From a virus, in the IMG/VR virus record IMGVR_UViG_3300025122_000194, positions 1 through 21,416 of that record: DNA of 21,416 nucleotides, one strand, 5' to 3'. The notes beneath the pieces were generated by a model that searched no databases, had not been told where the DNA came from, and saw only the letters and a list, made by a program, of their open reading frames with translations. The number at the start of each line of letters is the position of its first letter. The stretch's first letter is position 1. A program made the position numbers and the translations under genes. Shown one piece after another: positions 120 to 9,172 of the stretch.

Positions 120-293
120 CTAGCTGTAATAATACTTTATATTGTAATCATACACCTTTTTAATTTTTCTAATAATTGCTCTTGCGATAAGCTTTCTAGA
201 AGCTTCTGAGGAAATATTCGTTGAAAATTTATTAAACTCTTCGAGTGTTTCAATAATAAGCTCCTCCATTTTTTTATCATTTTTGTTAGTCAT
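120..293 (-). CDS. Small hypothetical protein, 57 aa
   Basis: An open frame runs from ATG 293..291 to TAG 122..120 and begins 14 bases after the stop of the methyltransferase gene. The product (MTNKNDKKMEELIIETLEEF onward) is charged. It is predicted by eye to be mostly helical, with an acidic N-terminal half and a basic C-terminal half (RAIIRKIKKV) ending in a tyrosine-rich tail. No clear Shine-Dalgarno sequence precedes the ATG; a second in-frame ATG is at 269..267. The function is not recognised. Its place between the methylase gene and the tRNA, and the way it fills the gap exactly, favour a real gene, but the call rests on position and frame only. Confidence 0.5.
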   Translation of the reverse strand: MTNKNDKKMEELIIETLEEFNKFSTNISSEASRKLIARAIIRKIKKVYDYNIKYYYS

Positions 294-307
294 ACTGTTA
301 TAATAAC

Positions 308-1195
308 TTATTCTTTATCTTTTGTCAAGATCATTCTTTCCATGGACTTGTCATAATATTCCTTGTCCATCTCGCATCCAATAAATTTTCTCCCCGTATT
401 GCGAGCAGCTAATGCTGTCGTACCGGATCCGAGAAAGCAATCTAAAATAATATCATCTTCATTTGAATGTTTATTGATCAAATTTTCAAACAGTAGTAGG
501 CTTTTCTGTGTGGGATGAAATCTATCCTTTCCGCCATAAATTGGGTACTCGTAGATTCCTTTGTCGTATTTACTATTAAATGTGGGTTTACTCTTCTTGA
601 TTCCAAGCAGTGCAATCTCCCTACAATTAGTAAGATAATTAACACTACTATTGACTGGCTGTGGGTTGGTCTTAATCCATTCGATATATCTTATTTGCTT
701 AAATTTAGCATTTTCAAGCTGTTCTTTAAGGTAAGAAATTTTCCAAAGATCGAAGAATATTATACATGTACCCCCGTCCTTGAGAACACGATGGAAATGG
801 TCGACAAACAATTCAAGCCTCTCCATAGTAAATTCAGAGTCCCATTTTCCGTAGTCGGTTCTAACTGCATATTTCTTCCCATAAATACTACCGTATTTAA
901 GATAATTCTTTTTTAAGTCTTTTAACTTTTTATCTCTTTTCGCTTCGGGAATGTCGCCTTTATCAAACCAGCCGTTCCATTGTTCTTTGGTTTTATATTG
1001 GCCCCAATCCTCTTCGGTCATAACGTCAAGAGAGTCAGCACTATCTTGCTTGGCAACATGATCGACCCACTTGTCCATACCAGTTTCTCTGGATGTTATA
1101 TAAGGAGGATCAGTTAGAATAAGATCTATAGAATTGTCTGGAAGCTCAGAAAGAAATTCTAAGCCTTCTTTGTTGAAAATCTTAATGTCTTTCAT
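308..1195 (-). CDS. DNA methyltransferase, N6-adenine type (beta class)
   Basis: The 295-residue product carries the amino-methyltransferase catalytic motif DPPY (29-32) near the N-terminus. The S-adenosylmethionine-binding motif FLGSGT (254-259) is near the C-terminus, followed by an E-M-D acidic segment. This order (motif IV, target recognition, motif I) defines the beta class of the N6/N4 methyltransferase family (PF01555). DPPY, rather than SPPY, favours adenine N6 methylation. The middle 60-230 would hold the target recognition region. No CcrM-type C-terminal extension is present. The ATG follows the TAA of the ParB-like gene with no gap, so translation is probably coupled. It is the last gene of the nuclease/ParB/methylase cassette. 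It may protect phage DNA from the neighbouring nuclease or from host enzymes; the recognition sequence cannot be read from the protein. Confidence 0.9.
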   Translation of the reverse strand: MKDIKIFNKEGLEFLSELPDNSIDLILTDPPYITSRETGMDKWVDHVAKQDSADSLDVMTEEDWGQYKTKEQWNGWFDKGDIPEAKRDKKLKDLKKNYLKYGSIYGKKYAVRTDYGKWDSEFTMERLELFVDHFHRVLKDGGTCIIFFDLWKISYLKEQLENAKFKQIRYIEWIKTNPQPVNSSVNYLTNCREIALLGIKKSKPTFNSKYDKGIYEYPIYGGKDRFHPTQKSLLLFENLINKHSNEDDIILDCFLGSGTTALAARNTGRKFIGCEMDKEYYDKSMERMILTKDKE

Positions 1196-2338
1196 TTACT
1201 TTTCTACAAAATTCTTACTTCTAGCGTATTCTCCTTTTAGAATGAGTTTTTGTTCACTTTCCCTCTGAGGAACAAAGCAAATTTTATGAACTGAGGGAGT
1301 ATTATTTCCATTTTTATCAAATAAAATTTTATTCCAACTCTTGAAGCTCTCGATTATGGTATCTCTAATGCTTTCAATTCCTTGATCGTTAGACCAATTA
1401 ATCGCAGCGACAACCACAACCTTGTCGGCCTTGTTGGAAGAACATTTTTCATGGGTAGAACTTTTCCACGTTCCGCCTGTCGTCTCGCCTTTGCCGTTCA
1501 AAAACCAAACGCAAACTTTGCCATGATTTTTAGTGTCAAAAATTTCTCCGGATTCAAACACCTCCTTGATGTCTTTTCCACTTTTGCCTTGAGACTCTTG
1601 CTTTTTCTTCCATTGGTCTCGCGTAATTTCATAAGAATTGTGTGAGAAAAAATATTCACACTGCTCATTTTTGTCCCAGGTTCTAAACTTCTTTTGAATA
1701 TCCGGAATACTTTTTCGAAGCTTACCCCAGAGGCCTCTAAATTTTCGACCTCCCCAGGAAGGTATTTCCTTTTTAACGAATTCTTTTATTTTCTCTTTTT
1801 GATCTTCATCGTTTAGATCCTTGAATTCTTTATCTTTTTCGTCAAATGCCTTGGCAGAAATTAACTTTTTGATATTAAAGACAACATCTTCCGGGGTCGC
1901 TGGTGATTGAGGTCTCTTATTCGCGTTCTCCTTGAGTCCGAGCACTATTTTTTGAACTTCGTTGCCTCTAAATACTCTAACCCAAATGTGATCATCTTTA
2001 ATATGGGGGATCGATTCATTGTTATCAAATACTTGACTCGAAGCTCTAAATCTCGTATGTCCAAAAATTATTTCTCCGGACGGAGTAACACATATTGGAT
2101 AAAGCTGTCCTACTGCAGCCAAATCGTCTGCCATTTCGGTAACTTTATTTGCATCGCAATCTTTTACCCTTGCTTGGTTGGCAATCAAACGAATCAACAC
2201 ATCCAAAGGAAGTTGATAGCATTTATGCGAAACACCATCAACTTCGCAGTGCATATTCTTTGTGCCATAACCTCCGAAATGAAAATCGATTTTCCCTTCT
2301 GTGTTCTTTTTGAGAATTTTCAAATTAGTTTTATTCAT
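1196..2338 (-). CDS. ParB-like domain protein, 380 aa
   Basis: Residues about 42-165 resemble the ParB/Srx N-terminal fold. A helix after NQARVKD is followed by a strand and then the signature GHTRFRAS (93-100), the counterpart of the GERRYRA-type motif of ParB proteins. A second motif, ENANKRPQSPATPEDVV, resembles the helical part after it. The C-terminal 200 residues are lysine-rich and then beta-rich, and match no family I recognise. No ParA ATPase is nearby, so plasmid-type partition is unlikely. ParB-type domains also occur beside or fused to phage DNA methylases, and that fits this context. ATGA overlaps the stop of the nuclease-like gene, and TAA abuts the methylase ATG. A GGAG ribosome site lies 11 bases before the ATG. 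It may bind or nick DNA, or control the cassette; the role is inferred. Confidence 0.75.
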   Translation of the reverse strand: MNKTNLKILKKNTEGKIDFHFGGYGTKNMHCEVDGVSHKCYQLPLDVLIRLIANQARVKDCDANKVTEMADDLAAVGQLYPICVTPSGEIIFGHTRFRASSQVFDNNESIPHIKDDHIWVRVFRGNEVQKIVLGLKENANKRPQSPATPEDVVFNIKKLISAKAFDEKDKEFKDLNDEDQKEKIKEFVKKEIPSWGGRKFRGLWGKLRKSIPDIQKKFRTWDKNEQCEYFFSHNSYEITRDQWKKKQESQGKSGKDIKEVFESGEIFDTKNHGKVCVWFLNGKGETTGGTWKSSTHEKCSSNKADKVVVVAAINWSNDQGIESIRDTIIESFKSWNKILFDKNGNNTPSVHKICFVPQRESEQKLILKGEYARSKNFVEK

Positions 2339-2967
2339 ATTAGTTTTACTCCATATTTTTTAATTTCTTTTTCAGTCAGACTCACTCCAAAACGAGGATC
2401 TGCGGGAATTTTTCCATTTTCCAACTTTTCTTGTAATCCATAAAATTGTCTTTTGACCTTTGGAATTAAAATATCTAAAACTTTTGTTGCAGGCATTACC
2501 CATAATTCGACTGGGAAACCTTTTTCCACGCGTGCAAGATAGTGCATATGGTATTTGCCAATTTTTTCCTCTCTAAGATATTTTTCCTGCTCAGGCCAAG
2601 TATCCTTGTTGGATATTCCATTATAAGTGGCCTGAAGTTTGGGTTGAATTGTCGATTTAAACTCAACACCTCTGTCTTCAGTGTCAAAACCATCGGCGCC
2701 ACTCTTGGTGGGCGCAATAGTAAACCCTAAGATGTTAGCTATGATAATTTCTCCTCCTCTATTATAATTTGTAGGATCCCCCCAATTGTTATCATCGCAT
2801 CTGTTAGCAGCTGCGCTCCACTCAAAGGCAAACCTATCTTCTTCCGTATCAAAGTGACATTCCATGAACTCATTGTACTTTTTCAACGTTTCTTCATCAA
2901 TTATCAAAATTTTCTTGTTATGCTGCACCAACAACCTCTCATTTATATTATGAACACCATTGTACAT
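2335..2967 (-). CDS. Putative PD-(D/E)XK nuclease, restriction-endonuclease-like
   Basis: The product of 210 residues has the segment G-A-D92-G-F followed ten residues after D92 by E102-F-K104-S-T. This is the spacing of the D...ExK catalytic core of PD-(D/E)XK nucleases. An upstream helix with E73 could supply a further metal ligand. The ATG at 2967..2965 overlaps the TGA of the exonuclease gene and has a good GAAGGA ribosome site seven bases upstream. It is therefore preferred over a TTG at 3024 that would add 19 residues inside the exonuclease. The gene overlaps the ParB-like gene by ATGA, and a methylase follows, so a type II restriction role is plausible. Other PD-(D/E)XK functions (repair nuclease, host DNA degradation) remain possible. 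The family assignment rests on the motif only. Confidence 0.6.
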   Translation of the reverse strand: MYNGVHNINERLLVQHNKKILIIDEETLKKYNEFMECHFDTEEDRFAFEWSAAANRCDDNNWGDPTNYNRGGEIIIANILGFTIAPTKSGADGFDTEDRGVEFKSTIQPKLQATYNGISNKDTWPEQEKYLREEKIGKYHMHYLARVEKGFPVELWVMPATKVLDILIPKVKRQFYGLQEKLENGKIPADPRFGVSLTEKEIKKYGVKLI

Positions 2968-3932
2968 CACTTTTCCTTCGTTGTCAAGCAAATTCTTTTC
3001 ATTGTTGCAAACATTTCTGACCAATCGTATGCACCAATGCCATCTTCAATCATCAATCCAATGCACTGAGTCTTATTCAGTTCTGGTGTCATCTCTTTGA
3101 TCGCGTATTTGACCTTTTGACTTGCTTGCACTGAAACCAGTGGCGTGTACAGCTGCATCATCTTATAATTTCTTATTATTTTCTTCTCGCCACTCAAAAT
3201 ATTATGATGAACTTTTAGAGGGTTTTCGACGTCTTCGCATGCTTTCAAGAGCGTCCCTATCTCGTGCGTATTTGCCTCTGAGAGGAACGGAAACCGCTTA
3301 GCAACGGTCTTTAAGCCGGCTCCCCCTACACCGTCTAGATTGTCGCTCTTATCGCCGCAAATGGCCCTTGCAAGGGCGAAGTTGTTAGGGTGTATACCAA
3401 ACGTCTCAACTAGTCTTTTGACGTTTATGAACTCAATTTGGACCGGCCTATAAACTACTGTTTTATCATTACAGAGTTGATAGAAGTCTTTATCACTTGA
3501 AATTATAACCTTCTGAGCGTCCTTGAAGTGCTGCATTTGTGCGACATAACTAATGATGTCATCTGCTTCTATTTGCTCAATCATGATCTGAGAAACTGGC
3601 AAACAATTGAGATAAGTTATCAGTCTCTGCTGTTGCCATACTTTATTTCTAAATTCTTCTTCCTCGGACATGGTTCGCACATTCCTATTGAGACGAACAG
3701 GTTTTCTGCCGTCTTTATAGCCTTTGTGCATTATCTTTCTTTTTCTGCTTCCATCAGGTCCATCCCAACAGATCACAATATGATCAGGCTTCATCTCTCT
3801 ACAATATTTTTGGAGAGATTTCAGAAAACCAAATGCGCCGCCGATGGGCTCACCATTCAAAGCAATCGAAGGATTTGATATGTAAGCTCTCAAATAAATG
3901 TTGAGGGCATCAATTATTAATACTCTTTTCAA
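2967..3932 (-). CDS. 5'-3' exonuclease / flap endonuclease (T4 RNase H / T5 FEN family)
   Basis: The 321-residue product has the full set of FEN-family metal and DNA sites. These are VLIIDALN (D8), WDGP (56-59) with the following basic arch (SRKRKIMHKGYK), EADD (122-125), SSDKDF (145-150), GDKSDN (193-198) and the helix-hairpin-helix loop GVGGAG (201-206). Enzymes of this family remove RNA primers and flaps during phage replication. The preferred start is TTG at 3932..3930, which forms a TTGA overlap with the stop of the preceding gene and has AGGTGG as ribosome site. A longer frame from TTG 3977 would add 15 unmatched residues. The product is a stand-alone exonuclease; the polymerase in this window lacks a fused 5'-3' domain, so this protein probably supplies that activity. 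Confidence 0.92.
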   Translation of the reverse strand: MKRVLIIDALNIYLRAYISNPSIALNGEPIGGAFGFLKSLQKYCREMKPDHIVICWDGPDGSRKRKIMHKGYKDGRKPVRLNRNVRTMSEEEEFRNKVWQQQRLITYLNCLPVSQIMIEQIEADDIISYVAQMQHFKDAQKVIISSDKDFYQLCNDKTVVYRPVQIEFINVKRLVETFGIHPNNFALARAICGDKSDNLDGVGGAGLKTVAKRFPFLSEANTHEIGTLLKACEDVENPLKVHHNILSGEKKIIRNYKMMQLYTPLVSVQASQKVKYAIKEMTPELNKTQCIGLMIEDGIGAYDWSEMFATMKRICLTTKEK

Positions 3933-4225
3933 AACCACCTTTTTTTTGGATAAAGTTTGTTGATCTCGTCCATGCAATCGCCCAACAAACGTTGATAAAA
4001 TATTTCATCTGTAATGTCTGATATTGGAGGAGTCCAAGATAATTTAAGTTTCCTTCTTCCTGCTTTAAGAGTTTGTCTTTCGTTGCAACCAAAAAGCGGA
4101 CCAGGAAGCTCTACGTTGATGAGTCTAAATTTCATTTTTGGGAAACATCCCGCGAGATCCTCTAAAAACCTATCTTCCATACTGTAATTAGAATCACAAT
4201 TTATAACATTCAAGCTTGCCGTCAT
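3929..4225 (-). CDS. Unknown protein, 98 aa
   Basis: I do not recognise this protein. It begins MTASLNVINC and ends KLYPKKRWF. A proline-rich middle (ELPGPLFG, SWTPPISD) is followed by a helical C-terminal part (DEIFYQRLLGDCMDEINKLY). No signal peptide, membrane segment or nucleotide-binding motif is visible. The ATG at 4225 lies inside the end of the deaminase gene (32 bases of overlap). An alternative ATG at 4180..4178 would start 14 bases after that stop and give 83 residues; neither has a clear ribosome site, so translational coupling is likely. The sequence AGGTGG near its stop doubles as the ribosome site of the exonuclease. Its place between nucleotide metabolism and replication genes suggests a DNA-related role, but this is inference. 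Confidence 0.65.
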   Translation of the reverse strand: MTASLNVINCDSNYSMEDRFLEDLAGCFPKMKFRLINVELPGPLFGCNERQTLKAGRRKLKLSWTPPISDITDEIFYQRLLGDCMDEINKLYPKKRWF

Positions 4226-4601: not shown

Positions 4602-5718
4602 AAAAATCTGCTGCTTCGCCTTGCCGCTTGTCAAATTTGAGGATGATCTCTTCCTCCATTATTTCTAATACTCTATCACGAAATTTCTGATTTGTCAACA
4701 TATTTTTCCATTTTGATGGTTGAAATTTCTCTTCTGTACCATCTTTGTATTGGAGAGAATACCATGCTCCACTTTGCTTAAGATACTCAGAACCTTTGAT
4801 GGCCTCAAACCAACTTTCTTCATCTTGGATGCCAATATCATCGCCCCAAAGAATTTTAAAACTGGCTTGTCTACCTTGAGTCCCAAAACGACTTTTTTTG
4901 AGAGTAGCTTTGATCTCTGATCCGACTCTAAACCCTCTTTCGTCAAGTACAAAACTTGCTTTTGCTTTACGTCCTGTAAGCCAAATACGAAGAGAATAGG
5001 AATAGATCATGGCTTTTCCTCCAGGCGTCATATAAGGTTCAACCATCGCTTCAGAAGGGCTTCTGGTGATGTTTGTCTTAAGTTGATTAAGAACTAGAAA
5101 TGTAGATTGACTATTCGCAATTGGAACAGTTAATTTGGACATTCCTTTGGCAAGAATACGAGCTTTAACAGCCATTGAGGATAGCGGATTAAAGTCGCCT
5201 TCGACATCACTAACGGATGGAGTCAGAGCAAGACTATCCCAGATAAAGAGCATACGATTATCATTATTAGCAAGAAGATCTTCAATTGTTTCAAGAACGA
5301 ACTCCACGCTCTGTGCCTGAATATAAAGCAGCTCTTCTAAATCGCAACCAGTTCGTTCTAAAAACGTTGGATCGATTGCTGATTCAGAATCAAAATAGAT
5401 TACATCGATGCCCATTTTTTGAGCATTGGCAGCAACCTGAGCAGCCATGTAAGACTTTCCAGTTGATTCTAATCCGGCAATTTCAACAACCTTTCCTACT
5501 GGTACACCTGTTAGGCGGCCGCGACAAATAATTGAATCCAACCACCGTGATCCGGTTGGAATCCAATCCTTTACCTCTGTTGGGTTAGCATCGTTTAAAT
5601 TGTGTGCAACAGACATGCCAGCCTTTTTATTGATAAGACTTCGCATGTCTGACATAGAAAGTTTGCCTGCTTTAGTTTTTGTTTTTCTTGCCATTTTATT
5701 TCTATTTTTATTCGACAT
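4525..5718 (-). CDS. RecA/UvsX-type DNA recombinase
   Basis: The 397-residue product has a RecA core. The Walker A motif is GLESTGKS (82-89), the catalytic glutamate sits in YFDSE (E112), the Walker B segment is MLFIWD (156-161), and the L2-like loop is KTNITRSPSEAMVEPYMTPG. The N-terminal 45 residues are basic (KMARKTKTKAGK) and the C-terminus is acidic (NENIEEDTK), a usual arrangement for recombinases that interact with a single-stranded DNA-binding protein. It would form filaments on single-stranded DNA for recombination-dependent replication and repair. The Walker A is closer to bacterial RecA (GPESSGKT) than to T4 UvsX. The ATG at 5718 overlaps the end of the FKBP gene by 11 bases; a second ATG at 5694 is possible, and neither has a strong ribosome site. 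It is the third gene behind the promoter at 7052-7080. Confidence 0.93.
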   Translation of the reverse strand: MSNKNRNKMARKTKTKAGKLSMSDMRSLINKKAGMSVAHNLNDANPTEVKDWIPTGSRWLDSIICRGRLTGVPVGKVVEIAGLESTGKSYMAAQVAANAQKMGIDVIYFDSESAIDPTFLERTGCDLEELLYIQAQSVEFVLETIEDLLANNDNRMLFIWDSLALTPSVSDVEGDFNPLSSMAVKARILAKGMSKLTVPIANSQSTFLVLNQLKTNITRSPSEAMVEPYMTPGGKAMIYSYSLRIWLTGRKAKASFVLDERGFRVGSEIKATLKKSRFGTQGRQASFKILWGDDIGIQDEESWFEAIKGSEYLKQSGAWYSLQYKDGTEEKFQPSKWKNMLTNQKFRDRVLEIMEEEIILKFDKRQGEAADFYDIENENIEEDTKLSVVGQTDGATE

Positions 5719-6181
5719 TCAAAAGTTCAATTTCAAAATTCAAATTTTTGCCGGCAAGAGGATGATTAAAATCCAAAATAACAGTATCCTCGTTGACTTT
5801 GTCAATCCTCGCAATCACTGACTGGCCCTCGGCATCTTGTCCACGCACCATATTGTCAACCTCGAATTCAAAACCATTTGGGAAATTCGTTTGCGGTACA
5901 GTTTGAAAATTTTCAGGATTAATTTCCCCATATGCTTCTTTCGGCTCTACTTTAACTTTTTTAACTTCACCAATTTTCATCCCAGACAAAGCTGCGTCAA
6001 AACCAGAAATCAGTTCGCCGGAGCCCACCTCGAAAGATACGGCTTCTTCACGAACTCTGGAACTGTCAAATTCAGTACCATCATCAAATGTGCCAACGTA
6101 GTGTACACTTACCGTCTGCCCACTCTTAACCTTTTTACTTTTTGTTTTTTTACTTTTTGTTTTTTTACTTTTTGTACTCAT
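5708..6181 (-). CDS. FKBP-type peptidyl-prolyl isomerase, SlyD-like
   Basis: The 157-residue product has the FKBP core in two parts, about residues 20-88 (VHYVGTFDDGTEFDSS, FEVGSGELISGFDAALSGM) and 125-157. An insert-in-flap region lies between them. The SlyD hallmark NHPLAG (139-144) is present. Such enzymes are combined prolyl isomerases and chaperones in the cytoplasm. The C-terminal metal-binding histidine tail of E. coli SlyD is absent. The N-terminus instead has three copies of T-K-S-K-K/T-type repeats (residues 3-19), giving a strongly basic tail encoded by a 15-base tandem repeat. An AAAGGA ribosome site precedes the ATG. The gene sits between the single-stranded DNA-binding protein and recombinase genes, so its clients may be replication or recombination proteins. 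That is inference. Confidence 0.92.
   Translation of the reverse strand: MSTKSKKTKSKKTKSKKVKSGQTVSVHYVGTFDDGTEFDSSRVREEAVSFEVGSGELISGFDAALSGMKIGEVKKVKVEPKEAYGEINPENFQTVPQTNFPNGFEFEVDNMVRGQDAEGQSVIARIDKVNEDTVILDFNHPLAGKNLNFEIELLNVE
6131..6175 (-). repeat. 15-base tandem repeat, three copies
   Basis: Three consecutive 15-base units (6161-6175, 6146-6160, 6131-6145) encode the lysine-rich N-terminal tail of the SlyD-like protein. On the minus strand each reads ACAAAAAGTAAAAAA, and the last copy differs only in its final base. They are in frame, so copy-number changes would lengthen or shorten the tail by five residues without breaking the gene. The A runs also make the site prone to slippage. 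Confidence 0.9.
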
Positions 6182-7080: not shown

Positions 7081-7973
7081 GTGTTTTTTTCACTTTTTTG
7101 TCGTTGAATTTCTGATGAATGAGCGATTACGTATGAATAATCTTCTGCATATTTTGTTGCGAATATTCCGTAACCAGTCTTAACATCATTTTTAACTTGC
7201 TCTTTAATTTTTTTAAACAAATCACCGTCTTCTTCTAATTTTTTTTTGTTTATGGCATAATAGTAGCACAATTCTTTTATTTCGTCAAGGGAATAAAAGA
7301 ATTTTTTTTCTCCGGTCTCAAAGTTAATAAATCCGATAGTAGAAATCCTATTAATTTTGTCAGGTTCTGAAAATGTAGAAACTTCTGGCTCATTATGATT
7401 ATAAACGTTTATCATATGAAACGTTGAGACAATCATTTCGTTTAATCGATCATAATAGCCAATAACTGGAACTTCACCCAAATGCTTTTCAATTTCAGAG
7501 TTATTCACAAGATAAATCCTTTTAAAAACTCCAGATCTAGCATATTCTTGTAAAACGTTAAAAACAACCCACTCATGTTTAATTTTATCCGGTGAAAGAG
7601 ATTCTAATTCCGGCTTAATATATAAAATACTTATATCACAATCTTTTATTTGTTGTAATATGGCTAATGTGGCAGCAGAAACAGAATCAGATCCACTAAC
7701 AACAAAAAGTACTTCACCTTTTATGTTTCTAAAGAAATGACCCAAATTTGGACAATTTTTTTCATATTGTTCCGGGCTGTCTTGCTTTCTAAACCTGTAA
7801 ACACCGTCCTTCTCATATCCGCTATTTTCATCAACATCATAAGAAGCCCATGACCAATCGGTCTGGTCTAGATCATTGTCTACATTAATTTTATAAACTT
7901 TATACTGACTATAATTTAAAAACCCATCAGCAATATTGCAGCCTATCTCCCCTATACCAACAACACTATCCAT
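7077..7973 (-). CDS. Divergent tubulin/FtsZ-superfamily-like protein, 298 aa
   Basis: The order of elements follows the FtsZ nucleotide-binding domain. The segment SVVGIGEIGCNIADGF (3-18) matches the glycine-rich T1 loop (IGVGGGGGNAV in FtsZ), and YKVYKINVDN (24-33) matches FFAVNTD. GEVLFVVSGSDSVSAATLAI (86-105) lies where FtsZ has the T4 signature GGGTGTG, but only glycine and serine remnants are left. ISILYIKPE (114-122) corresponds to VAVVTKP, IYLVNNSEIEKHLG (153-166) to ITIPNDKLLKVLG, and YYDRLNEMI (173-181) to helix H7 with its guanine-contacting asparagine (N178). The catalytic T7 loop NxDxxD is not found. A small C-terminal domain (210-298) follows. ATG overlaps the polymerase stop as TAATG. 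The superfamily call is by eye; a Rossmann-type protein without GTPase activity is the main alternative. Confidence 0.55.
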   Translation of the reverse strand: MDSVVGIGEIGCNIADGFLNYSQYKVYKINVDNDLDQTDWSWASYDVDENSGYEKDGVYRFRKQDSPEQYEKNCPNLGHFFRNIKGEVLFVVSGSDSVSAATLAILQQIKDCDISILYIKPELESLSPDKIKHEWVVFNVLQEYARSGVFKRIYLVNNSEIEKHLGEVPVIGYYDRLNEMIVSTFHMINVYNHNEPEVSTFSEPDKINRISTIGFINFETGEKKFFYSLDEIKELCYYYAINKKKLEEDGDLFKKIKEQVKNDVKTGYGIFATKYAEDYSYVIAHSSEIQRQKSEKNT

Positions 7974-9172
7974 TATGAGAATAACTCCTTTAACTCTCCA
8001 AAATTTTTACCAGTTTTAATATTACTTTTAAACTTGCCAAATCTCGTATTGGTAAATTCATCTACAATATCTTTCATAAGATGTTTATCATCTTTGTGTA
8101 AATCAATAACTATGCTGTCATGTATACAAAAAGAAATATTAGACTTTCTATCTTTTAGTATATCATAAATTTTAATCATTTTTTGCAAAATAAGATCAGC
8201 ACATGTACTCTGAATGATATAATTTAATGCATGATGCTTATCTGCTGGAATTTCTCTGTTAAAACAAGTCCTTACCATTTTTCCATCCCAATATTCATTT
8301 AAAACTTTATCTTTGTCATACATCTTTCTTAACATTTTCTCATTCGAATGTTCTTTTGAATTATAAAGCCAAGCAAAAATAGAATTTTTAACTTCCTGTC
8401 GTGACAAAACTTTATTCTCAAACAAAAATCTTCTATTCCATTCGTGAATATCAATTGCCGGCTGATTCTTGTCTGACAGAGCTAACAAAGTTCTTAGTTC
8501 TGCTCCATTATAATCTAGCTCGACAAATAAATCATTATTTGGCTTGATAATAGAGCGGTACCTTTTCGGAAAAGTAAGAATTGGAAAACTATATTTTTTT
8601 GTTGTTAATCTTCCTGTTTTTGTGCCAAAGATATCGTATCTCACGTATGGCGAAATATTCTGAACTTTCTTTCTCCATTTTCTTGCTTCATGTTGAGTTA
8701 AAAAGGGTTTAAACTCGTCTATATCAATATTGAGTTTTTGTTGATTTATATCTTCAACCACTTTCGTTAACAAAGTTAAAAATCTCAAATTTCTGGGCGG
8801 CAAAAAATTTTCAAAAACGTGTTTTGTAATTCGATTCTTAATTTCACAGTATTCCAAAAGAAATTTTTCCGGAACCAAGTCATAGAAGCAATTATCGTCT
8901 AATGAAACCTTTGCTAAGTGAATCGATCTCATAAAAGCTTTTAGCTTATTATTAATCTTATCCCAGTCATCTTTTATACCGGAGGGGCAAACACTGTCAA
9001 GAGATTCGCCACCACATTGCAAATGGCCGTATCTAATTTCTCTATTCCTGAGAGAAGATGAGTAAGACCATGTTTTACTAATTCCTTCAGGAAGTTTGTC
9101 ATCAAAGTAAAGATTTCCGTCATAATATACTCCTGCACATTTATATTTATTATCCAATGTTTGAAATAACAT
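7973..9172 (-). CDS. Family A DNA polymerase, short form without exonuclease domain
   Basis: The 399-residue product contains the Pol I palm and fingers. FGTKTGRLT (182-190) corresponds to TATGRLSS, motif A is LDYNGAELR (219-227, catalytic D220), and motif B has R258, K262, F266 and Y270 at the exact four-residue spacing of the Pol I O helix. HHALNYIIQSTCADL precedes motif C, which reads CIHDSIVID (D352). The glutamate that usually follows this aspartate is a serine. No 3'-5' proofreading motifs and no 5'-3' exonuclease are present. Residues 1-100 match nothing I know. At 399 residues it is much shorter than the roughly 600-residue Klenow-type module. AAGG precedes the ATG by eight bases. It probably replicates the phage genome with the nearby exonuclease and ssDNA-binding protein, and would need a separate proofreading subunit or lack proofreading. 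Confidence 0.88.
   Translation of the reverse strand: MLFQTLDNKYKCAGVYYDGNLYFDDKLPEGISKTWSYSSSLRNREIRYGHLQCGGESLDSVCPSGIKDDWDKINNKLKAFMRSIHLAKVSLDDNCFYDLVPEKFLLEYCEIKNRITKHVFENFLPPRNLRFLTLLTKVVEDINQQKLNIDIDEFKPFLTQHEARKWRKKVQNISPYVRYDIFGTKTGRLTTKKYSFPILTFPKRYRSIIKPNNDLFVELDYNGAELRTLLALSDKNQPAIDIHEWNRRFLFENKVLSRQEVKNSIFAWLYNSKEHSNEKMLRKMYDKDKVLNEYWDGKMVRTCFNREIPADKHHALNYIIQSTCADLILQKMIKIYDILKDRKSNISFCIHDSIVIDLHKDDKHLMKDIVDEFTNTRFGKFKSNIKTGKNFGELKELFS

What the first reader, a model, noticed from the sequence alone, without database searches (positions are those of the whole stretch)
308..2967. Three-gene nuclease / ParB-like / adenine methylase cassette in a phage early region
A putative PD-(D/E)XK nuclease, a ParB-like-domain protein and a beta-class DNA methyltransferase are joined by ATGA and TAA-ATG junctions and probably translated together. 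A restriction-type nuclease with its methylase inside a lytic-type phage operon would be unusual. The ParB-like protein between them is an extra, unexplained partner with about 200 C-terminal residues of unknown type. It could be a phage-borne restriction unit against rivals or host DNA, or a DNA-marking system.
Basis: partly seen in the sequence, partly recalled or inferred. Interest (0 to 1): 0.65.

Follow-up and report, generated by a model that had tools for sequence, protein, structure and literature searches.

The report
Phage-borne restriction cassette with ParB-like partner
A marine virus of bacteria carries its own small "cut unmarked DNA, mark own DNA" kit (a PvuII-like nuclease, a matching methylase and a ParB-like partner), and close relatives carry different such kits or none at the same place in the genome, so these viruses probably use exchangeable restriction systems against rival or host DNA.

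Summary
In detail: nuclease (210 aa), ParB-like protein (380 aa) and beta-class DPPY methylase (295 aa), joined by TGATG, ATGA and TAAATG junctions. The nuclease family has an invariant D-x9-E-x-K triad and a PvuII fold by profile and by model. Relatives are common in marine viral contigs and present in isolates P-SSM2, P-SSM5 and P-TIM68, annotated hypothetical. A methylase lies within 2.5 kb in 112 of 119 nuclease loci (34 of 37 nonredundant), though its class varies. A very divergent ParB-like protein recurs as third gene; in other cassettes a DUF262-like/HNH protein, a GHKL ATPase or a DEAH-box-like protein takes its place. In close relatives the site between exonuclease gene and tRNA-Ile is empty, holds a reordered cassette, or holds other nuclease+methylase sets (one Hpy188I-like). 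Best explanation: an exchangeable type II-like restriction-modification cassette used against competing phage (or host) DNA, with a nucleotide-regulated ParB accessory. Virus-borne R-M pairs are known (chloroviruses, marseilleviruses); this modular ParB-containing phage form is a new variant. No activity was tested; the target sequence, the shared specificity and the ParB role are inferred.

The parts
2335..2967 (-). PvuII-like PD-(D/E)XK nuclease (putative restriction endonuclease), 210 aa; catalytic D92, E102, K104. Residues 1-40 are not conserved, so the true start may lie downstream
   Evidence: Triad invariant in 37 nonredundant homologs; profile A2 hits PvuII 9.6e-6; AF2 model pLDDT 89 with PvuII top PDB match E 8.8e-6; isolate homologs P-SSM2/P-SSM5 51%, P-TIM68 43%
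1196..2338 (-). ParB-like accessory protein, 380 aa: ParB/Srx-type N-terminal half (Q-x-R at 55-57, G93-H-T-R96, E137-N138) and a C-terminal alpha/beta region of unknown type
   Evidence: Family alignment A3; profile hits ParB/KorB/Noc from 2e-6; fold match to CTP-bound ParB and Noc; ParB-box residues
308..1195 (-). Beta-class DNA methyltransferase, 295 aa (DPPY at 29-32, FLGSGTT at 254-260), predicted N6-adenine
   Evidence: PF01555 5e-33; 47 viral relatives up to 84% identity; motif residues conserved in 45 sequences
120..293 (-). 57-aa ORF at the far edge of the insertion site; directly follows the exonuclease gene in cassette-free relatives
   Evidence: L135, L136, L137
37..113 (-). tRNA-Ile (anticodon TAT), fixed edge of the variable site
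   Evidence: ARAGORN, Rfam; follows the variable interval in the relatives examined
2967..3977 (-). 5'-3' exonuclease gene, fixed other edge of the variable site (true start may be internal)
   Evidence: PF02739 3.6e-28; 88-96% identical in close relatives
2959..2987 (-). Promoter-like TTGACA-17-TACAAT (11 of 12) across the nuclease start; possible own promoter of the cassette
   Evidence: Consensus scan only; weak evidence

Best explanation
The cassette is a phage-borne type II-like restriction-modification module. The methylase marks a specific sequence in the phage's own DNA; the PvuII-like nuclease, probably a dimer like PvuII, cuts the same sequence where it is unmarked, that is in DNA of co-infecting or superinfecting phages and possibly of the host. 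The ParB-like protein is a nucleotide-binding (probably CTP) DNA-engaging accessory that tunes or licenses the nuclease/methylase pair; its place can be held by other predicted NTPases or by nuclease-fused proteins. The module sits in an exchangeable slot between the exonuclease gene and tRNA-Ile. Shown by sequence: the families, catalytic residues, linkage, recurrence and exchange at one site. Inferred: activity, a shared target of nuclease and methylase, use against rivals (favoured over host degradation because near relatives differ at this site), and the ParB role.
For: Nuclease: invariant D/E/K triad across 37 sequences, PvuII by profile and by fold. Linkage: methylase within 2.5 kb of the nuclease in 112 of 119 loci and 34 of 37 nonredundant; 74 of 80 in the nuclease-centred set versus 8 of 80 exonuclease-centred background loci carrying any methylase model (Fisher 2e-28, not corrected for relatedness). 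The nuclease is paired with different methylase classes: NPPF type, beta DPPY, large NPPY. Reverse sampling from the methylase finds the nuclease in 34 of 47 loci; about half of the rest are cut by contig ends. ParB family in 25 of 47, any accessory in 35 of 47. Same-site exchange in close relatives (exonuclease 88-96% identical): empty L132, L133, L142-L146; nuc-MT-ParB L138; DUF262-like/HNH-MT L140, L141, L151, L157; nuclease-like 205 aa-MT-ParB L139; HNH-MT L150; GIY-YIG (Hpy188I 2e-6) plus Eco57I-like MT L134. Precedent: chlorovirus R-M degrades host DNA (PMC7019647); marseillevirus R-M proposed as a weapon against other viruses (PMC7253447).
Against: No biochemical or methylome data; target unknown. 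The case for the ParB function rests on analogy and gene displacement. Seven loci lack a nearby methylase (in P-SSM2 it lies 7 kb away; in the other, fragmentary contigs none of the searched type was found). L085 has methylase and ParB but no nuclease. Distances of nuclease and methylase correlate only weakly across cassettes (Mantel r 0.21, p 0.054; nuclease with ParB -0.12), as expected if parts are shuffled but no positive sign of co-evolution. Many cassettes have no recognised accessory (82 of 119 loci), so ParB is not essential to nuclease-methylase pairs in general.
Confidence: 0.72

Rival explanations
1. Host-genome degradation kit: the nuclease cuts unmodified host DNA early in infection to feed nucleotides to the phage while the methylase protects phage DNA, as in chloroviruses. 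(Overlaps with the best explanation: same enzymes, other victim.)
For: Chlorovirus precedent (PMC7019647). The cassette sits among DNA-metabolism genes next to the exonuclease. The methylase gives a way to tell self from host DNA.
Against: Nearly identical relatives lack any cassette at the site, so it is not needed for replication; diversity between close relatives fits competition better. In marseilleviruses host DNA was not degraded (PMC7253447).
Confidence: 0.3
2. Anti-restriction module: the methylase masks phage DNA against host restriction, and the nuclease and ParB have separate jobs or are remnants.
For: Phage methylases are common (925 phage records match the methylase); L085 keeps methylase and ParB without nuclease.
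Against: The nuclease stays open with a 100% conserved catalytic triad and is linked to a methylase in 34 of 37 nonredundant loci; at the same site unrelated methylases also come with unrelated nucleases.
Confidence: 0.12
3. Free-standing homing or selfish endonuclease whose gene spreads with neighbouring genes.
For: T4-like cyanophages carry homing endonucleases (PMC3037559); the cassette is an insertion absent from relatives; nuclease relatives in the P-SSM2 group lack an adjacent methylase.
Against: PvuII-type fold and strong methylase linkage across different methylase classes. Homing endonucleases do not need a methylase.
Confidence: 0.05
4. The ParB-like protein is a second, non-specific or nicking nuclease rather than a regulator.
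For: A ParB-methylase fusion (Bce_0392) is reported to nick DNA, and GmrS-type ParB domains are tied to nuclease activity (PMC5512222). In other cassettes the slot holds a DUF262-like protein with an HNH motif.
Against: No conserved catalytic acidic cluster was seen in the C-terminal half; in other cassettes the slot is held by a GHKL ATPase or a DEAH-box-like protein, which are not nucleases.
Confidence: 0.25

Closest known systems
PvuII type II restriction endonuclease
   Same: Fold, order of elements, D-x9-E-x-K spacing; best profile and structure match
   Different: Identity only 15-18% in the structural alignment; the stretch aligned with PvuII's His83-85 recognition residues reads YNGIS instead, so the target is probably not CAGCTG (inference; PvuII residue roles from general knowledge)
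Chlorovirus and marseillevirus restriction-modification pairs
   Same: Virus-encoded adjacent nuclease and methylase (PMC7019647, PMC7253447)
   Different: Viruses of eukaryotes, two genes only, no ParB-like or other NTPase partner mentioned in the passages read
ParB-methylase fusion proteins (Bce_0392) and GmrSD
   Same: ParB/Srx-fold domain working with a methylase or nuclease (PMC5512222)
   Different: Here ParB is a separate gene in a three-gene cassette with a PvuII-like nuclease, with a long C-terminal region of unknown type
MORC/paraMORC-containing bacterial R-M operons
   Same: R-M operons in which an accessory ATPase is displaced by unrelated ones (PMC2292703); a GHKL ATPase also fills the slot in L111, L126 and L131
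   Different: Those are bacterial, mostly with superfamily II helicases; here phage cassettes with a small type II nuclease and usually ParB-like proteins
Synechococcus phage S-RIM2 three-gene unit
   Same: 179-aa nuclease-like protein, ParB-like (DUF6551-related), adenine methylase in the same order
   Different: Nuclease resembles EcoRI by eye only (no database confirmation); methylase is D12 class; ParB belongs to a different branch

Membership tests
Type II restriction-modification system | Endonuclease of a restriction fold with intact catalytic residues | tested here: met
   Fold and triad met; sequence-specific cutting itself not testable
Type II restriction-modification system | DNA methyltransferase encoded with it | tested here: met
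   Adjacent in the window and near in 34 of 37 nonredundant nuclease loci; that both share one target is not shown
Type II restriction-modification system | Methylation protects DNA from the nuclease | not testable with these tools
   Needs enzyme assay or methylome
PvuII family (PF09225) | Score above Pfam gathering cut-off | tested here: not met
   No hit for the window protein; 12 of 36 relatives hit weakly, best 1.3e-4. PvuII-like, not filed as a member of PF09225
PvuII fold group | PvuII topology with D-x9-E-x-K | tested here: met
ParB N-terminal domain (PF02195) | Score above Pfam gathering cut-off | tested here: not met
   16.6 bits against 26.3
ParB/Srx superfamily | ParB fold and G-x-x-R and N box residues | tested here: met
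   Invariant G93, R96, N138; ParB and Noc are the top fold matches
ParB/Srx superfamily | NTP binding and hydrolysis | not testable with these tools
   Inferred from box residues only
Beta-class N6/N4 DNA methyltransferase (PF01555) | Score above cut-off, DPPY before F-x-G-x-G | tested here: met
   115 bits against 26.7; motifs
Known defence-system models (PADLOC) | Nuclease or ParB match | tested here: not met
   Only the methylase matches, as MTase_II

The most novel reading that the evidence does not exclude
Marine T4-like phages carry a distinct class of three-component restriction systems, in which a ParB-fold nucleotide-binding protein (or a substituted NTPase) is a functional third subunit that gates a small type II nuclease, exchanged as whole cassettes at tRNA-adjacent slots as an inter-phage weapon.
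Probability: 0.3. Interest if true: 0.82.

Novelty: new variant of a known kind. Interest (0 to 1): 0.62.

Why it matters
It suggests that many 'hypothetical protein' plus 'DNA methylase' pairs in marine T4-like phages, including cultured ones (P-TIM68, P-SSM2, and possibly S-RIM2 and P-SSM7), are restriction systems carried by viruses that are themselves the usual targets of restriction. That would give a mechanism for exclusion of rival phages, or for telling host from phage DNA, and it can be tested directly in isolates. The repeated presence of ParB-like or other NTPase proteins beside simple type II enzymes raises a new mechanistic question.

Tried and rejected
Single-protein scans of viral contigs with the nuclease and the ParB found nothing; a three-sequence profile and the methylase were needed. 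The ParB protein has no tblastn match in phage records or plasmids, nor do two relatives in phage records. The RE_MjaI hit and the late restriction-enzyme fold matches to the ParB protein are at chance level and were not used. Co-evolution by distance correlation was tested and found weak. Cellular origin of the nuclease: only one short contig of a Flavobacteriales MAG in GTDB and none of 296 other genomes of that phylum; cyanobacteria were not surveyed in this way. EcoRI identity of the S-RIM2 protein was not confirmed by search. Homing endonuclease considered and set aside. No phage-borne PvuII-like or ParB-containing R-M was found in the paper searches, but REBASE and subscription journals were not searchable.

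Full report
Observation. The window is a virus record of 21,416 bases with T4-like genes. On the - strand a 5'-3' exonuclease gene is followed by the three genes of the finding, then a 57-aa ORF and a tRNA-Ile. The junctions are TGATG, ATGA and TAAATG. The methylase is a clear beta-class enzyme. The nuclease and the ParB-like protein have no single-sequence match above a curated cut-off, so they needed relatives.

The nuclease. Cyanophage isolates P-SSM2, P-SSM5 and P-TIM68 hold homologs annotated as hypothetical proteins. A profile of three sequences found 148 viral loci, 80 of them kept. In 37 sequences less than 80% identical to each other, D92, E102, K104 and eleven other positions never vary. 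The spacing equals that of PvuII. A 36-sequence profile hits PvuII first among solved structures (single-chain PvuII 9.6e-6, inflated by its two copies; ordinary chains 0.014-0.07). The model (pLDDT 89) matches PvuII first (E 8.8e-6, TM 0.52 by query and 0.69 by target), then Eco15I and NhoI, which the PDB titles describe with methylated DNA. A methylation-dependent nuclease is therefore a residual possibility, but PvuII fits better.

Linkage to methylases. In 112 of 119 loci with the nuclease a methylase lies within 2.5 kb on the same strand; in the nonredundant set 34 of 37. The methylase is most often a short NPPF enzyme, otherwise the beta-class DPPY enzyme of the window or a large NPPY enzyme (L029). 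In P-SSM2 the NPPF methylase lies 7 kb from the nuclease. Searching instead from the window's methylase gives 47 loci, of which 34 hold the nuclease; about half of the others are cut by contig ends.

The ParB-like partner. Iterated profiles join the window protein to about 27 proteins, nearly all lying between nuclease and methylase or directly after the methylase. In the compared cassettes they are only 22% identical on average, whereas their nucleases are 55% and methylases 66% identical. The 17 aligned members all keep G-x-x-R and the N of the third ParB box; a few drift in the first box. The profile hits ParB, KorB, Noc and sulfiredoxin structures, and the model matches ParB and Noc structures bound to nucleotides. 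Over much of its length it resembles cyanophage proteins such as a 400-aa protein of P-SSM7; a 400-aa gene, most likely that one, lies close to a nuclease-like gene and two methylases in that isolate. In four loci a different, DUF6551-related ParB-like protein takes the middle place with the NPPF methylase, and in S-RIM2 the same branch lies between a nuclease-like protein and a D12 methylase. In other cassettes the place is held by proteins read as DUF262-like with a C-terminal HNH (by eye; HNH only weakly supported), by a GHKL ATPase (PF13589 5e-23), or by a protein with DEAH-box-like motifs (by eye). Many nuclease-methylase pairs have no recognised accessory.

Exchange at one site. Among the closest relatives by exonuclease (88-96% identity) the interval between exonuclease and tRNA-Ile is empty in seven loci, holds only the 57-aa ORF in three, and in the rest holds a nuclease plus methylase set of at least five different make-ups, plus one methylase-ParB remnant. 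One nuclease there matches Hpy188I (2e-6); the HNH of L150 is a weak match and the 205-aa protein of L139 is a nuclease by eye only. The window's methylase is 82-83% identical to that of L138 at the same site, while the nucleases are only 39% identical. The whole set is best read as restriction cassettes exchanged at a hotspot.

How it works, and what is shown. Shown: gene content, catalytic residues, fold, recurrent linkage, exchange. Inferred: the methylase marks phage DNA; the nuclease cuts unmarked DNA; the ParB-like protein binds a nucleotide and DNA and regulates the pair. Use against rival phages is favoured because near relatives differ in what they carry, as proposed for marseilleviruses (PMC7253447); host degradation as in chloroviruses (PMC7019647) remains possible, and both may apply. 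The displacement of ParB by other NTPases mirrors what was described for accessory ATPases in bacterial R-M operons (PMC2292703), which argues for an NTP-dependent role, but this is analogy.

Novelty. Virus-borne R-M pairs, ParB-methylase fusions (PMC5512222) and R-M operons with accessory ATPases are each known. A PvuII-like nuclease, separate ParB-like protein and methylase as an exchangeable phage cassette was not found in the literature that could be searched. I rate it a new variant of a known kind. Limits: statistics are not corrected for relatedness, most loci are fragments, and some domain calls are by eye and marked so.

Noticed in passing
L212:2857-3396 (S-RIM2): 179-aa hypothetical protein with an EcoRI-like reading (PDGG...FEGKK...GNAIER), directly before a ParB-like gene and a D12 adenine methylase; likely another kind of phage-borne R-M. 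No hit in solved structures.
   Followed up: partly
L029:11853-13239: A second nuclease-like protein (201 aa) next to a beta-class methylase in a contig that already has the PvuII-like nuclease with a large methylase: perhaps two R-M systems in one phage.
   Followed up: no
L134:5625-7510: GIY-YIG nuclease similar to Hpy188I followed by an Eco57I-like methylase at the same exonuclease/tRNA-Ile site.
   Followed up: yes
L222:2941-5214 (P-SSM7): 178-aa protein with a D...E-I-K pattern before two methylases in a cultured phage, annotated hypothetical.
   Followed up: partly
L003:5003-7033 (P-TIM68): The nuclease is flanked by two methylases, one SPPY type (possibly N4-cytosine) before it and the NPPF type after it.
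   Followed up: partly
window 300-328, - strand: Promoter-like TTGACA-17-TATTAT before the 57-aa ORF and tRNA-Ile; with the one at 2959-2987 it brackets the cassette.
   Followed up: no
window 7973-9172: Short (399 aa) family A DNA polymerase ORF, with an uncharacterised 298-aa gene behind it.
   Followed up: no
window 5708-6181: ORF reading as an FKBP-type peptidyl-prolyl isomerase (by eye) in a phage DNA-metabolism gene cluster.
   Followed up: no
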